Assembly: GCA_002239025.1 (NCBI GenBank)
Contig: MPNM01000003.1
Span: 62,001-126,000 of the forward strand
Direction: 5' to 3'
Origin: Chloroflexi bacterium bin125
GTDB taxonomy: Bacteria > Chloroflexota > Dehalococcoidia > Bin125
Length of the DNA: 64,000 nt
The notes beneath the pieces are model-generated. The model ran no database searches. It saw only the letters and a program-made list of their open reading frames with translations, and was not told the DNA's origin. The position numbers and the translations under genes are program-made. This document shows, in pieces, positions 7,038-12,797 of the stretch (position 1 is its first letter; each line of letters opens with the position of its first letter).

Positions 7038-8381
7038 ATGGCCTTGCCCGATGTAGCGCCGCCGCTCAATGCTCTGCAAGCTGACTTTGACGCGCTCAGC
7101 TTTGATGAGCGAACGCGCCTGTTAGGTGGGCTTTCCCCGGTTGACTCCCAGGGCCGATACCTGCCGTGGGATGAAGTGCGCTACCGCCAACCTCCGGCCG
7201 GACTGACCCGGCGCTTGTGGTGGCTGAGCCTGTCCAGCGCCCGTCGCGCCGCTCAGCGTGAGCTGCCTTTGCACGCGCGCGGTGCCAAACCCTTCTGGTT
7301 CTGTCAAACCGGACCGCTGCCCGGGTACCTCCGCCGCTGGGACGCGGATGTTTCGGCGTACGACGTTCACCGCGATCTGGGTCTGACTGATGCGGAACGC
7401 AGTCAGCTACGCATCAGCTCCGAAATGTTCGAGTCGATCCAATCCAGCCGCCTGGAGGGCGCTAACACGACCCGCGAGGTTGCAGTCGAGATGCTTCGCG
7501 ACGGACGTGTGCCTCGCGACTACAGCGAACGCATGATCGTGAACAACTACGCCGCGATGCAGTTGATATCGCAATGGTCGCAGGACAGCGAACCGTTCGA
7601 CCGTGAGCACATTCTGGAACTGCATCGGGTCGTCACCGACGGCACGCTGCGCGACCACGACGTTGGCCGGTTGCAGACGCCGGCTGATCCTCGCGTGTAC
7701 GTCGTCAGTCGTGGCGGCGAGGTCGTGCACGAACCGCCGCCCGCCTCCGAGTTACCTGAGCGAATCCGGCGACTCTGCGAGTTCGAAAACGAACGCACCG
7801 ACTCGACCGACCCGCACCCGTTGATTCGAGCCATCCTGGTGCACTTCATGATCGGCTACGACCACCCGTTCGCCGATGGCAACGGCCGGACAGCGCGGGC
7901 CCTGTTCTATTGGTCGCTGTTGCGATCGGGCCTGTGGCTAGCGCCATTCCTGCCGATCTCGCAGTTCTTGCTGACCGCGCCGGGACAATACTCGCGCGCA
8001 TATCAGTATGTGCATGCCGACGGGAATGACGTGACATATTTCCTGCTGCACCAGTTGCAGGTGATCGAACGCGCCCGCCACCAACTCAACGATCATGTTT
8101 CCGGCATGCGGTCCTGGATGGTCCGAGCGCAACGAGTCACCGATGGCGAAGCAGGGCTGAATCAACGGCAGACCGACCTGCTGGCGGAGTTGTTGCCAGA
8201 TCCCGACCGTTACATCACGATCGCCCGCCACCGGCGCGTCAACGGAGTGAGCTATGCCGTCGCCCATGGCGATCTGAATGATCTCGTCGAACGCGGGCTG
8301 CTCACGCGTGAGCGGATGGGCCGACGGCTGCAGTTCCGACCGGTGCCGGATCTCCAGGAACGACTGGATCCTGTCACATAG
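7038..8381 (+). CDS. Fic family protein with C-terminal winged-helix region
   Basis: This 447-residue protein has the Fic catalytic motif HPFADGNGRTAR at residues 276-287, complete with the catalytic His and the phosphate-binding GNGR. The N-terminal inhibitory helix motif S-x-x-x-E-G is present at 136-141 (Glu140), as in class II Fic proteins that hold their own AMP-transferase activity in check. The C-terminal 80 residues (QRQTDLLAELL to LVERGLLTRERMGRRLQF) look like a winged helix. Fic enzymes transfer AMP or other phosphate groups to protein hydroxyls. Two matching palindromes upstream suggest tight and possibly self-acting control. The target is unknown. Confidence 0.93.
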   Translation: MALPDVAPPLNALQADFDALSFDERTRLLGGLSPVDSQGRYLPWDEVRYRQPPAGLTRRLWWLSLSSARRAAQRELPLHARGAKPFWFCQTGPLPGYLRRWDADVSAYDVHRDLGLTDAERSQLRISSEMFESIQSSRLEGANTTREVAVEMLRDGRVPRDYSERMIVNNYAAMQLISQWSQDSEPFDREHILELHRVVTDGTLRDHDVGRLQTPADPRVYVVSRGGEVVHEPPPASELPERIRRLCEFENERTDSTDPHPLIRAILVHFMIGYDHPFADGNGRTARALFYWSLLRSGLWLAPFLPISQFLLTAPGQYSRAYQYVHADGNDVTYFLLHQLQVIERARHQLNDHVSGMRSWMVRAQRVTDGEAGLNQRQTDLLAELLPDPDRYITIARHRRVNGVSYAVAHGDLNDLVERGLLTRERMGRRLQFRPVPDLQERLDPVT

Positions 8382-8833
8382 CCCACCCCTCCGCAGTCCG
8401 CTGCGAGCTATGCTAATATCAGAACAAACGAGCGCATGAATGCGGAAGTCGATGCCGGTCCCTTGTCCAACCAACGAAGCCGCTTCCGCCGAACCCCGCG
8501 CCAACCTGGCCGACCGAGCGCAACTGCGCCAAACCCCATCGAACGGATCCGAACAAACCCGAACAGAATGCGCTGAACCAGACTGAAGAAACCTGAAGAA
8601 ACCTGAAGAAACCTGAAGAAACCTGAAAGACCTGTGACACGATCCCCAGTGCTGCACAGGAGATCGTGCCCGCAGAGGCCCCGGAAAAAATTAATCCTGA
8701 AAACCTGAAGGCTGAAAAACAAACACCTCGACCGAACAGGGAAACCCAGCGCGAGAGTCGACCAAGCCCGTTCCACGCCCACTTATGTGATCCGGCCGAA
8801 GGCGGGTAGTCTGCGGAGGTGAAGGAGTGAACG
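8382..8833. other. 452-base gap without a convincing gene
   Basis: AT-richer than its surroundings. It holds a run of 10-base tandem repeats (8583-8631), an A-rich tract (8684-8720) and, at its end, the GGAG binding site of the Mrr gene. Open frames on the minus strand here are repeat-derived and cross the starts or ends of real genes. A promoter for the Mrr pair probably lies in its right half, but I see no clear -35/-10 pair. Confidence 0.6.
8583..8631. repeat. Tandem decamer repeat (CTGAAGAAAC, four perfect copies plus a partial)
   Basis: CTGAAGAAAC repeats exactly at 8583, 8593, 8603 and 8613. A degenerate CTGAAAGAC follows at 8623, and looser relatives of the unit (CTGAAAACCTGAAGG) occur near 8697. 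The 10-base period is close to one helical turn. Confidence 0.9.
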
Positions 8834-9709
8834 ATGGCGTCCAAAGAAGAAGTAGGACTCCCAGGGTACCGGGAACTCCGTTGTCGCACTCTCGAAGTAA
8901 TCCGCGACTTGACAATGCCGACGAGTAATGCCGACATAGACATGGCAGTGGCCGACGCATTTTCCTTGACCGCAGAGCAGCGATCACTTCCGCATGGCGA
9001 AGGATCACAGACTGAACTGGCCTATCGGACTGCCTGGGCCAGAAGCGGACTTGTAGCGGCGGGCGCTATAGAAAACGTCAGCAAAGCACTGTGGAGGCTG
9101 ACACCAGCCGGTTTGACATTGACTTGTTCTGAGATAGAGCAAGCCCGCGCGGAGTACTTGGAGAGACTTAAGGCGGACAAGGATTCTGGTACAGCGATTC
9201 AAGATTCGACTGATGACGAAGAAGAGGCGCGCTCGTGGCAAGATGAGCTGATAGACCACCTCGTCAGAGTTTCGCCAAAGGGTTTTGAGCATCTTGCTGC
9301 AGCCCTGCTGAGGGCAGCAGGATTCGACGACGTTGAAGTAACCGGGCGATCAAGCGATGGAGGCATCGATGGCATTGGAACGTATCACCCATCCGGTCTG
9401 ATCTCATTTCACACTGCCTTTCAGTGCAAGCGATACAAGAGTGTCGTGGGTGCGCCCACTGTTCGCGATTTTCGAGGATCCTTTATCGGTCGGTCCGACC
9501 GGGGAATCGTCATCACAACAGGAACGTTCACGCGCGAAGCGAGGGAAGAGGCAGCACGGCCGGGCGCGAATCCCGTGGATCTGATCGATGGAGCCGCTCT
9601 TTGCCAGCTCCTCAAGGAACATTCCCTCGGAGTTCGCACTACCCAACGTCTTGTAGAGGACGTAACCGTCGATGAGGACTACTTCAGACAGTTCAAGGAA
9701 CCAACATGA
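8834..9709 (+). CDS. Mrr-family restriction endonuclease-like protein
   Basis: This 291-residue protein has the two-domain Mrr layout. Residues 1-100 form a winged-helix recognition domain ending KALWRLTPAG. Residues 140-275 form a PD-(D/E)xK nuclease domain with FEHLAAALLRAAGFDDVEVTG, DGGIDG (Asp179) and QCK (Gln197, Lys199). Family members cut methylated or foreign DNA. GGAG six bases before the ATG supports the start. Codon use is more AT-rich than in core genes, consistent with acquisition. It overlaps the next gene by four bases (ATGA), so the two are coupled. Confidence 0.92.
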   Translation: MASKEEVGLPGYRELRCRTLEVIRDLTMPTSNADIDMAVADAFSLTAEQRSLPHGEGSQTELAYRTAWARSGLVAAGAIENVSKALWRLTPAGLTLTCSEIEQARAEYLERLKADKDSGTAIQDSTDDEEEARSWQDELIDHLVRVSPKGFEHLAAALLRAAGFDDVEVTGRSSDGGIDGIGTYHPSGLISFHTAFQCKRYKSVVGAPTVRDFRGSFIGRSDRGIVITTGTFTREAREEAARPGANPVDLIDGAALCQLLKEHSLGVRTTQRLVEDVTVDEDYFRQFKEPT

Positions 9710-10467
9710 ACCAGATGCGTGGTGTTCTTCTCGATGTCCTCGTTGCCTTGATCATTTTGATGGCTGGTGGGGCGATCTTTGCTCGCATTGCTGGCGTCGA
9801 GGAAGGTGAGTCGGCGCCGGCCTGGGTTCAATTTGCTCCGCTCGTGCTGGCGATGCTCTTTCTTGGTTGGCGCACGATTCGGCGCAACCGGCTGCGACGC
9901 GAGGCTGAGGCTCAGGCCGAGGAAGACCCACTGACCGACCACCGCGAACTCGAACGCGTCGAAGACCCGCCCATGGACGACTACCAATGGCGCTCGCGGC
10001 TGGAGTCTTCGATCCGCAACCTGGGTCGCGACGCCTTTGAACAGTTCACCAGGCGCATTCTGCACGCGATGCAAATCGTCGATCTCGAGGTGGTTCGAGT
10101 CGCGTTCGATGGGGCAATCGAGTGCGTGGGCGTCCAGGACGATGAGGAACGCGCCAGCGTCTATGTGATCTGTCGCCGCTCGTTCGGCGCGCTCGGCGCC
10201 AACCAGGTGCGCGAGATGAAGACCCTGATGGCCGACAAAGCCACAGAAGGTCTGTTCATCACGAATGGCGAGTTCTCTTCCTCGGCCATCGACGAGGCCG
10301 ACGAAGGCGACGAACCGATCGAACTGGTCGATGGCGATGACTTGCTCGATCTGATGCATACGCACCGGCTCGGTTTGATCTTTGACGAGATTGGCCGGGT
10401 CACTGCGATCGACGATGAATGGTTCCAGGACCTGGAACGCGACCACCGAATTGCAGATGGAGACTGA
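9706..10467 (+). CDS. Membrane-anchored Mrr-like nuclease-fold protein with altered catalytic residues
   Basis: This 253-residue protein begins with two hydrophobic segments (about residues 8-28 and 42-60), then a basic and acidic linker. From residue 100 it aligns by eye with the C-terminal domain of the upstream Mrr protein: FEQFTRRILHAM for FEHLAAALLRAA, DGAIE (135-139) for DGGID, and ICR (155-157) for QCK. The catalytic Asp is Glu139, Gln is Ile155 and Lys is Arg157, so cleavage activity may be reduced or lost. It could act as a membrane sensor or partner of the coupled Mrr protein; that role is inference. Confidence 0.8.
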   Translation: MNQMRGVLLDVLVALIILMAGGAIFARIAGVEEGESAPAWVQFAPLVLAMLFLGWRTIRRNRLRREAEAQAEEDPLTDHRELERVEDPPMDDYQWRSRLESSIRNLGRDAFEQFTRRILHAMQIVDLEVVRVAFDGAIECVGVQDDEERASVYVICRRSFGALGANQVREMKTLMADKATEGLFITNGEFSSSAIDEADEGDEPIELVDGDDLLDLMHTHRLGLIFDEIGRVTAIDDEWFQDLERDHRIADGD

Positions 10468-10469
10468 AC

Positions 10470-11585
10470 ATGGCCGCTGAAGCAACGAGTGAGGCGACCG
10501 TTGGAGTCCTGCCTGGCGATGACGCCGCACCGGAGGCTGTTCATGCCTCAATGGCGGTGCTGCAGGCGATGGAACTGCCGATCGCATTTGAGGTATTGCC
10601 CGACGGCGTAGACCTGACCCGCGAGATGTCTCGCGAAGAAGGCGAGAAGCTGGTCATCGACACCGCCGAGCGATGCGACACTGTGCTCTTCGGCTCGACC
10701 AGTGGGCAGACGCCAGGTGTCGGCTACTTCCGCTGGGGCAAGCAGACCTTTGCCAACGTCCGGCCGATTAAGTGGCGACCGGGATTTCGCTCGCCGATGG
10801 CGCAACCTGAAGGCATCGACTACATCATCGTCCGTGAGAATCTTGAAGACCTCTACGCAGGCATTGAAGGTGACCTGTCCGAGGTCGCAGCCTCGGGCCT
10901 GGCCGACCGCCCTCGATTCGGTGGCGTATCGCGGACTCAGGTGCCCGGCGGGTTTGGACACTTCGCCGAGGCTGAGGGTCGCTATGCGATCAAGTACTTC
11001 ACGCGCGCTAACGTCGAGCGGGTGGCGCACTTCGCCTGCCGCCTGACTCAACAGCGCAAGGCCGAAGGTTACGCAGGCAAGCTGACCTGCTCGGCCAAGA
11101 CCAACGTCCTGGCCAAGACTGACGGTTGGTTCGTCGAGATCGCGGCCGAGGTCGCCTCGGGCTATCCCGACATTGAGTTTGAGTCATTCATCGCCGACGA
11201 CTTCGCCCGGCGGCTCGTGGCCTCGCCGCACGACCTCGATGTCGTGCTACTGCCCAACCTGTACGGCGACATCTTCTCGGACGAGGGGGCCGGCACCATC
11301 GGTGGCCTGGGCCTGGCGCCGTCCGGATGCTTCGGTGAGGATTGGGCCTACTTCGAGTCCGTCCACGGCACCGCCCCTGATATCGCCGGGATGCACCGGA
11401 TCAATCCCACCGCAACGATGCTCTCGGCAGTGATGATGTTGCACCATCTCGGACTGCACGACCAGGCGTCAGGCCTGGAACGCGCGATTGATGCTGTGTA
11501 CGAAGCGGGAGAACGGCTGACACCGGACCAGGGTGGTTCGGCAACCACCGAGGACTTTGCTCAAGCCGTGATCGACGCACTGTAG
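10470..11585 (+). CDS. Isocitrate/isopropylmalate-type (beta-decarboxylating) dehydrogenase
   Basis: This 371-residue protein belongs to the isopropylmalate/isocitrate/tartrate dehydrogenase family. Visible are VRENLEDLYAGIEGD near residue 124, SAKTNVLAKTDGW with the catalytic Lys near 206, LLPNLYGDIFSDEGAGTIGG near 258 and ESVHGTAPDIAG near 295. The N-terminal cofactor loop, usually GDGIGPE, reads GDDAAPE, which is unusual. The substrate (isocitrate, isopropylmalate, tartrate or a related 2-hydroxy acid) cannot be assigned. The start is two bases after the preceding stop, with GGAG upstream; longer readings overlap that gene. Confidence 0.88.
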   Translation: MAAEATSEATVGVLPGDDAAPEAVHASMAVLQAMELPIAFEVLPDGVDLTREMSREEGEKLVIDTAERCDTVLFGSTSGQTPGVGYFRWGKQTFANVRPIKWRPGFRSPMAQPEGIDYIIVRENLEDLYAGIEGDLSEVAASGLADRPRFGGVSRTQVPGGFGHFAEAEGRYAIKYFTRANVERVAHFACRLTQQRKAEGYAGKLTCSAKTNVLAKTDGWFVEIAAEVASGYPDIEFESFIADDFARRLVASPHDLDVVLLPNLYGDIFSDEGAGTIGGLGLAPSGCFGEDWAYFESVHGTAPDIAGMHRINPTATMLSAVMMLHHLGLHDQASGLERAIDAVYEAGERLTPDQGGSATTEDFAQAVIDAL

Positions 11586-11714: not shown

Positions 11715-11812
11715 TGGCGGGAGCGCATGGGAGTCGAACCCACCCGAGACGGTGCGGACCGCCCCGCATCAGTGTTGAAGACTGTGGAGGACACCGGTCC
11801 CCTTCCGCTCCC
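11715..11812 (-). tRNA. selC: tRNA-Sec (selenocysteine), anticodon TCA
   Basis: Read on the minus strand, this 98-base gene has the features of bacterial tRNA-Sec. The acceptor GGGAGCG pairs with CGCTCCC before G-CCA, and the encoded CCA is at 11717-11715. The D stem is long (GGGGAC with GTCCTC). The anticodon loop is CTTCAAC, giving TCA. A long variable arm contains GCGG/CCGC, and the T arm is GGG-TTCGACT-CCC. It would read UGA as selenocysteine with SelB and a SECIS hairpin. No selA, selB, selD or evident selenoprotein gene is in the window. It stands alone between a repeat and the DUF4268 gene. Confidence 0.93.
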
Positions 11813-11840: not shown

Positions 11841-12797
11841 TCAGTCGAGGATTTCAATCAAATGTGGACGAAACACTTGATCGAAACTCAGAACAGTACG
11901 GATCATCCACTCTCGGATCTCGGCGAGGGATTCGTCGTCGTCGTCGATTGTCCCTTCACGACGAACCCCGATTTCGGACGCCTTGGCGTGGTCCATTCGG
12001 TTCCACGTCAGAGGCTGACCAAGCTCTGCTTCGATTTCAGATTTGCGTTCATGAAGGGCATCGTATGTCCTCTCGTTGTCATCTTTATCACCGCGATCAA
12101 GACGGATAGAAACTGAAGCAACGTTCCCCCGCTGGAATGACACACCGAATGGCAACCCGGAAAAGCCGCTACCGAAATGCATCCAATTCTGTGGCTGTCC
12201 TTTCTTTGCTCGAGTGAAGTCATGGGTGTCCCGCAACTGGTCAACAAGCGGCTGCCAAAAGTCGCGGTATCGACTCCTCTTGACAGACAATGTCTCGCTT
12301 CCGCTTGACGTAGACTCGTGTGCCCCTTGTTTCTCCCAGTCATTGGGCAAGGCCACCACATTGAATCGGGCCGCTGGAGGTGAGTCCTTAATGCGCCAGG
12401 CCTCGACGGCGATACCGAAGAAGGCAGTGTCTTCGCCAGTACGTCTGTTTAGCCAATCGATCGCGGCCCGATGCTCGGGGCGAAACTCTTTGACAATCCA
12501 GACAAGGATGTGAGCATCGTACCCCGCCGCATATGTCAGCAATTTGCCCAAGTGATCATGATCGGTTCCTTCGAGTTGATTCTCAATCACTACGGGCCGA
12601 TCGCTCGCAAGATCGTGCGCCAAGATGTCCAGAGAAAAGGTGCCAACTTCTGCTTCGCTGGTCTTGACTTCAAGGTCGAGGCCTAGAACGTCGCTTAGCT
12701 CCTCGATGTTGTCAGCCAACCAAGGAGTAAAATTGCTCGCTTCGTGCTTCCAGACTTCACGCAGGTCAACTGCCTCCAGCTTGCTCAACTCCACCAT
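11841..12797 (-). CDS. DUF4268 family protein with nuclease-like N-terminal domain
   Basis: This 318-residue protein has an N-terminal half with FSLDILAHD and VVIENQLEGTDHDHLGKLL (about residues 53-85), the hallmark of a PD-(D/E)xK-like fold found with DUF4268. The C-terminal half is the DUF4268 domain (RYRDFWQPLVDQLRD to the end). The function is not established; the family often sits among restriction and mobile genes. It is AT-richer than core neighbours and ends 28 bases before the tRNA-Sec gene. GGAGG upstream supports the ATG start. Role in DNA defence is a guess from context. Confidence 0.85.
   Translation of the reverse strand: MVELSKLEAVDLREVWKHEASNFTPWLADNIEELSDVLGLDLEVKTSEAEVGTFSLDILAHDLASDRPVVIENQLEGTDHDHLGKLLTYAAGYDAHILVWIVKEFRPEHRAAIDWLNRRTGEDTAFFGIAVEAWRIKDSPPAARFNVVALPNDWEKQGAHESTSSGSETLSVKRSRYRDFWQPLVDQLRDTHDFTRAKKGQPQNWMHFGSGFSGLPFGVSFQRGNVASVSIRLDRGDKDDNERTYDALHERKSEIEAELGQPLTWNRMDHAKASEIGVRREGTIDDDDESLAEIREWMIRTVLSFDQVFRPHLIEILD

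What the first reader, a model, noticed from the sequence alone, without database searches (positions are those of the whole stretch)
9706..10467. Membrane-anchored Mrr homologue with altered active site, coupled to an intact Mrr nuclease
Two Mrr-fold genes overlap by four bases. The first keeps Asp179, Gln197 and Lys199. The second carries two membrane segments and has Glu139, Ile155 and Arg157 in the same places. This looks like duplication followed by a change from nuclease to membrane sensor, inhibitor or partner, which would make a two-part defence system.
Basis: partly seen in the sequence, partly recalled or inferred. Interest (0 to 1): 0.55.

Follow-up and report, generated by a model that had tools for sequence, protein, structure and literature searches.

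The report
Membrane-bound, probably inactive Mrr nuclease relative
Beside an exchangeable DNA-cutting defence gene, these bacteria keep a membrane-anchored protein with the same fold but without the usual cutting residues; it stays even where the cutter is gone, so it probably has a job of its own.

Summary
Gene A (8834-9709) is an Mrr protein with an intact site. Gene B (9706-10467) overlaps it by four bases and has a membrane hairpin plus an Mrr fold whose D, Q and K are E, I and R. The pair recurs, but is not an obligate two-part system. B is in 13 of 15 genomes of the genus (in the other two its locus is not assembled), always upstream of one dehydrogenase. A is beside B in 9 of 13 and absent in 4, where A's leader stands before B. 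Two of those four have no other Mrr_cat match. B stays under purifying selection without A and hardly co-diverges with A, whose recognition domain is swapped among strains. B's altered site is nearly invariant, and its Mrr domain is more acidic than all 119 others compared, which speaks against ordinary DNA binding. Membrane-anchored Mrr proteins sampled elsewhere in the phylum nearly all keep the catalytic residues and group apart. Best reading: a genus-core membrane pseudonuclease acting by protein contacts, with A an exchangeable restriction cassette under the same leader. Its function is inferred. Origin by duplication of A is disfavoured, not rejected.

The parts
9706..10467 (+). Gene B, 253 aa: membrane hairpin plus Mrr-fold domain without the usual catalytic residues
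   Evidence: Pfam Mrr_cat 70 bits; full length in 13 of 15 genomes of the genus
9709..9885 (+). Membrane hairpin of B (helices from residue 2 and residue 39; end approximate)
   Evidence: hydropathy; model helices H2-28 and H39-72
10015..10356 (+). Mrr_cat domain of B (residues 104-217)
   Evidence: Pfam; AspBHI 4oc8 Z 13.8
10105..10125 (+). FDGA[IV]EC motif of B, with E139 where Mrr has the catalytic Asp
   Evidence: 98% mean pairwise identity over 13 B proteins
10162..10212 (+). Second altered site motif of B (residues 153-169), with I155 and R157 in place of Q and K
   Evidence: 87% mean pairwise identity over 13 B proteins
8834..9709 (+). Gene A, 291 aa: Mrr_N plus Mrr_cat with intact D179, Q197, K199
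   Evidence: Pfam 58 and 107.6 bits; residues
8807..8814 (+). TAGTCTGC in the leader shared by A, or by B where A is absent; possibly a -10 element
   Evidence: TAGTCTG in 12 of 12 genus loci examined; TAGTCTGC found once in the 64-kb window
10470..11585 (+). Isocitrate/isopropylmalate dehydrogenase-family gene, constant downstream neighbour of B
   Evidence: Pfam Iso_dh; next to B in 13 of 13
7038..8381 (+). Fic-domain gene in the same variable slot upstream of A
   Evidence: Pfam Fic; in 7 of 12 genus loci whose upstream side is assembled

Best explanation
B is a vertically inherited, membrane-anchored pseudonuclease of the Mrr fold, found in full length only in this genus among the genomes searched. 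Shown: homology, predicted fold, replacement of the three catalytic residues, near invariance of the altered site, purifying selection, fixed place before the dehydrogenase, persistence without A. Inferred: B no longer cuts DNA and, being strongly acidic, works by binding proteins at the inner face of the membrane through its former active-site surface. A is a separate Mrr-type restriction endonuclease, a cassette gained or lost and re-specified between the shared leader and B; where A is present the two are probably co-transcribed and translationally coupled, without B depending on A.
For: E, [IV] and R in 13 of 13 B proteins; Lys kept in 119 of 119 other rows: 9 A and 41 others, 69 phylum proteins; at least one row is a duplicate. 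B precedes the dehydrogenase in 13 of 13. In G009, G010, G011 and G013 A is absent, with two kinds of junction, and the leader stands before B. G009 and G013 have B as their only Mrr_cat match at E 1e-4. dN/dS of B is 0.042 (G009-G011) and 0.157 (G010-G013), both pairs without A, within the 0.042-0.281 of the 32 pairs listed. Spearman over 8 genomes: A-B 0.12, B-dehydrogenase 0.39, B-DUF4956 0.75. Mean identity B 70%, A 54%. Net charge of B's domain -11 to -17, mean of A -4.0; 0 of 119 others as acidic per residue.
Against: No function of B is shown. E139 and R157 are conservative changes and the helix Glu (E112) is kept in 10 of 13, so a remodelled catalytic site is not excluded. The A-B overlap is exact in 8 of 8 complete pairs, and in the genus every A with a readable 3' side (9 of 9) is followed by B, which could mean a functional link. 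B's correlations with other neighbours are uneven (0.30 with CotH, 0.32 with the amidohydrolase) and A-CotH reaches 0.54. Neighbouring proteins are acidic too. Assemblies of the 13 are 91-98% complete, so 'no other Mrr' could be a gap.
Confidence: 0.5

Rival explanations
1. B is a standing restraint or dock for Mrr nucleases: the acidic dead fold pairs with, or mimics DNA for, the Mrr_cat domain of whichever A cassette is present, holding it at the membrane until infection. It stays in lineages that lost A because new cassettes keep arriving.
For: A lies directly upstream of B with an ATGA or GTGA overlap in 8 of 8 complete pairs; A beside B in 9 of 13; B shares A's fold and B proteins are the 13 most acidic of 132 Mrr_cat rows per residue. 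A's Mrr_cat varies less than its Mrr_N in 33 of 36 pairs, so a partner facing Mrr_cat need not follow whole A.
Against: G017 has A coupled to the dehydrogenase without B. G009 and G013 have B and no other Mrr_cat match. Spearman A-B 0.12.
Confidence: 0.25
2. A and B are an obligate two-part defence system, B being sensor, inhibitor or membrane partner of A.
For: Four-base overlap in 8 of 8 complete pairs; 9 of 13 genomes have both.
Against: B alone in 4 of 13, by at least two events; A alone in G017; no relaxation of B without A; no co-divergence.
Confidence: 0.1
3. B is still a nuclease or other phosphodiesterase with a remodelled site in which E139, R157, R158 and the GANQ stretch replace the D...QxK set.
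For: The altered site is the most conserved part of the domain: 98% and 87% against 69%. The substitutions are conservative and the same in 13 of 13.
Against: Lys is kept in 119 of 119 other Mrr_cat rows; the helix Glu is Gln in 3 of 13 B proteins; strong negative charge.
Confidence: 0.1

Closest known systems
Mrr-type (type IV) restriction endonucleases such as EcoKMrr
   Same: A has Mrr_N plus Mrr_cat and the intact D...QxK; B has the Mrr_cat fold
   Different: B lacks Mrr_N and the three catalytic residues, and has a membrane hairpin
Membrane-anchored Mrr_cat proteins with catalytic residues kept (several in this phylum)
   Same: hydrophobic segments plus an Mrr_cat domain in one short protein
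   Different: 34 of 35 sampled keep all three catalytic residues, the other has His for Gln; 29 labelled rows group apart from B
AspBHI / MspJI nuclease domains (4oc8, 4f0p)
   Same: closest solved folds to B's domain, Z 13.8 and 11.8
   Different: soluble modification-dependent enzymes with an SRA-like recognition domain (PMC3874153, passages)
Inactive nuclease domains beside active ones (COG4127, PAB2104; PMC1189080, passages)
   Same: precedent for an inactivated PD-(D/E)XK domain accompanying an active one, the active one Mrr-like in COG4127
   Different: there in one protein and without a membrane anchor described; here a separate membrane protein that also occurs alone
Pfam NA-iREase1 (NACHT-associated inactive restriction endonuclease 1)
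   Same: B matches the model at 45.3 bits
   Different: active A matches it as well (44.6 bits), and no NACHT domain was found in the six proteins scanned

Membership tests
Mrr-type restriction endonuclease (gene A) | Mrr_N plus Mrr_cat in one chain | tested here: met
   58 and 107.6 bits, cut-offs 29.5 and 21
Mrr-type restriction endonuclease (gene A) | intact D...QxK site | tested here: met
   D179, Q197, K199; invariant in the 9 A proteins
Mrr-type restriction endonuclease (gene A) | cuts modified DNA in the cell | not testable with these tools
   needs an experiment
Mrr nuclease (gene B) | Mrr_cat fold | tested here: met
   Pfam 70 bits; model Z 13.8 to AspBHI
Mrr nuclease (gene B) | D...QxK catalytic residues | tested here: not met
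   E, [IV], R in 13 of 13
Mrr nuclease (gene B) | Mrr_N recognition domain | tested here: not met
   no Mrr_N match for B at E 1
Membrane-anchored Mrr_cat group of the phylum | same clade by Mrr_cat domain | tested here: not met
   29 labelled rows on one side of a branch, SH-aLRT 96, B on the other (quick tree with long branches)
NACHT-associated inactive REase 1 | association with a NACHT protein | tested here: inconclusive
   no NACHT match among six proteins of the locus; others not scanned
Obligate two-gene defence system | the two genes always occur together | tested here: not met
   B without A in 4 of 13 genus loci; A without B in G017

The most novel reading that the evidence does not exclude
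A membrane-bound, acidic pseudonuclease acts as a permanent dock or antidote at a locus where restriction nucleases of the same fold are swapped in and out: a constant safety part that makes exchange of a toxic nuclease tolerable and may place the active one at the membrane to meet incoming DNA.
Probability: 0.2. Interest if true: 0.65.

Novelty: new variant of a known kind. Interest (0 to 1): 0.42.

Why it matters
It looks like a clean natural case of a nuclease fold turned into a conserved membrane pseudoenzyme that outlasts the active relative transcribed with it. The four A-less genomes are a ready comparison for what a pseudonuclease does without a nuclease. The swapped Mrr_N halves of A suggest how Mrr restriction enzymes change specificity.

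Tried and rejected
Viral contigs and phage records: no relative of B. Plasmids: 26 records with partial matches, none covering 80% of B. PDB by sequence with the B profile: nothing at E 0.1. NCBIfam: no family for A or B at E 1. PADLOC: PDC-S02 and general restriction-enzyme models for both.

Origin by duplication of A: the tree is against it, the AU test is not decisive. Origin from the common membrane Mrr group: the tree is against it. Non-cutting DNA binder as the main reading: set back by the charge result.

Gene calls picked many antisense ORFs and were replaced. misread minus-strand loci and was redone. Rows left out: 15 distant of 63; 12 of 132 (4 distant, 8 near-duplicates); loci skipped as repeats. 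In one search the label 'TM' was my own list; two of the 35 proteins with a hydrophobic segment were not labelled (L119, which lies outside the group, and L127, which lies inside it). Of 70 phylum loci one gave no match. Forty of the 70 were picked mostly for short reading frames, so 35 of 69 with a hydrophobic segment is not a frequency. At most six candidates per genome were scored.

Papers: PMC3874153, PMC1189080, PMC9122126, PMC7159879, PMC9519451 and PMC4012209 were seen as passages; all others as search listings. Searches for such a protein in print. No title or abstract beginning listed there describes it; the library lacks most subscription journals. The labels 'type IV' and 'Mrr_N as recognition domain' follow PMC3874153 and PADLOC.

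Full report
Check. ORF A is 8834-9709 and ORF B is 9706-10467, both on the plus strand, sharing ATGA. The named residues are right and the proteins are homologous (E 8e-11). A has Mrr_N and Mrr_cat; B has Mrr_cat only, after a membrane hairpin. The model of B has mean pLDDT 80.2 and pTM 0.62; ten-residue means are 88-96 over residues 91-240 and lower in the hairpin and linker. Its best solved relatives are AspBHI (Z 13.8, 145 residues, 2.8 A) and MspJI (Z 11.8). Rpb5 of RNA polymerase scores at most about 7, a level that the tool warns may mean only a common arrangement.

Distribution. Close relatives in named records are four MAG contigs titled Dehalococcoidia or Chloroflexota. Full-length B is in 13 of 15 genomes of the genus, G000-G014. 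G003 and G012 lack B and also the dehydrogenase that otherwise follows it; G012 has a piece of an A-like gene cut by a contig end. So in both the locus is not assembled and B cannot be judged. Outside the genus no listed match includes the hairpin: the earliest start is profile position 52 of 258 in the class sample (393 genomes, E 1e-10) and 53 in the phylum sample (400 genomes, E 1e-15). The samples overlap, and genomes beyond the phylum were searched only through (close relatives), plasmids, phages and viral contigs.

Locus. The order is Ldh2, HNH, amidohydrolase, [Fic], [A], B, dehydrogenase, tRNA-Sec, [DUF4268], DUF4956, VTC, CotH, amidohydrolase (brackets mark variable genes). A is beside B in 9 of 13: G000, G001, G002, G004, G005, G006, G007, G014, and G008, where the contig end cuts A. 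G009, G010, G011 and G013 lack A. Fic is present in 7 of the 12 loci whose upstream side is assembled. G017, another genus of the family, has Fic, A and the dehydrogenase with no B between.

A as a cassette. TAGTCTG lies 25-35 bases before the start codon of the first gene of the unit in 12 of 12 genus loci examined (my count from the printed sequences): before A when A is there, before B when it is not (G008 not included). TAGTCTGC occurs once in the 64-kb window, so this marks a shared leader rather than a general promoter word. The A-less junctions differ between G009/G011 and G010/G013, which means at least two events. [AG]TGA at B's start is kept in 13 of 13. The halves of A have different histories: G000 and G007 share 69% in Mrr_N and 57% in Mrr_cat; G000 and G005 share 30% and 82%.

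B as the constant part. Over the 8 genomes with both genes complete, mean identity is 70% for B and 54% for A. The Spearman correlation of distances is 0.12 for A-B; B correlates with its fixed neighbours at 0.30-0.75 (dehydrogenase 0.39, DUF4956 0.75), A with the same neighbours at 0.14-0.54. The pairs are not independent, so this is a tendency. dN/dS of B is 0.042-0.281 in the 32 pairs listed and not raised in pairs without A; synonymous change is high in most pairs, so the ratios are rough. G009 and G013 have B as their only Mrr_cat match at E 1e-4, G010 and G011 have one more each, and the nine genomes with A have 3-6. Their assemblies are 96-97% complete for the four without A.

The altered site. 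In 13 of 13 B proteins the Asp is Glu, the Gln is Ile or Val and the Lys is Arg; the helix Glu is Gln in 3. Among the other rows the Lys is never replaced: 9 A, 41 others, 69 phylum proteins. Among the 69, one has D to E (L167, this genome) and one Q to H (L163). B's two site motifs average 98% and 87% pairwise identity, against 69% for the whole domain and 77% for the hairpin. The site is therefore kept for some purpose. The domain is unusually acidic: mean net charge -13.5, against -4.0 for A, -1.9 for the 41 others and -0.2 for the 69 phylum proteins; none of the 119 is as acidic per residue as the least acidic B. Many neighbouring proteins are acidic as well (the dehydrogenase -26 over 371 residues), so part of this is the style of the genome, but B is the most acidic per residue of the 12 measured.

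Origin. In a careful tree B joins the soluble Mrr protein of G006 (L050 6445-7251; 98/93) rather than A; in a larger set the support was 89/83. Holding A and B together costs 9.7 log units (p-AU 0.195), and the genus A's with B 13.9 (p-AU 0.077). B's stem is long, so this is a lean and not a proof. Of 69 other phylum proteins 35 have a hydrophobic segment; 34 of these keep all three catalytic residues. The 29 of them labelled in the tree lie on one side of a branch (SH-aLRT 96, quick tree with long branches) and B on the other, which suggests that B gained its hairpin independently.

Reading. I think B is a protein-binding membrane pseudonuclease with its own role, and A an exchangeable restriction enzyme under the same leader. 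The dock or antidote reading is the strongest rival and the most interesting. Inactive nuclease domains beside active ones have precedents (PMC1189080, passages), and the Mrr features used here follow PMC3874153 (passages). Function, partner and activity are untested.

Noticed in passing
8583-8627: 4.5 perfect copies of a 10-base repeat lie between Fic and A, in a gap of about 450 bases that is only about 30 bases in G014.
   Followed up: partly
11715-11812 (-): A selenocysteine tRNA gene beside the locus; one was found in 13 of 13 related loci scanned.
   Followed up: partly
8867-9121: The Mrr_N recognition domain of A appears to be exchanged between genomes independently of Mrr_cat.
   Followed up: partly
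7038-8381 and 11841-12797: Fic and DUF4268 genes come and go at this same locus, which makes it look like a small hotspot of variable genes in a fixed neighbourhood.
   Followed up: partly
L167 1139-1618: Another Mrr_cat protein of this genome has Glu for the catalytic Asp but keeps QxK.
   Followed up: no
L050 6445-7251: Soluble Mrr protein of G006 with an intact site and another N-terminus; the nearest relative of B in the tree.
   Followed up: partly
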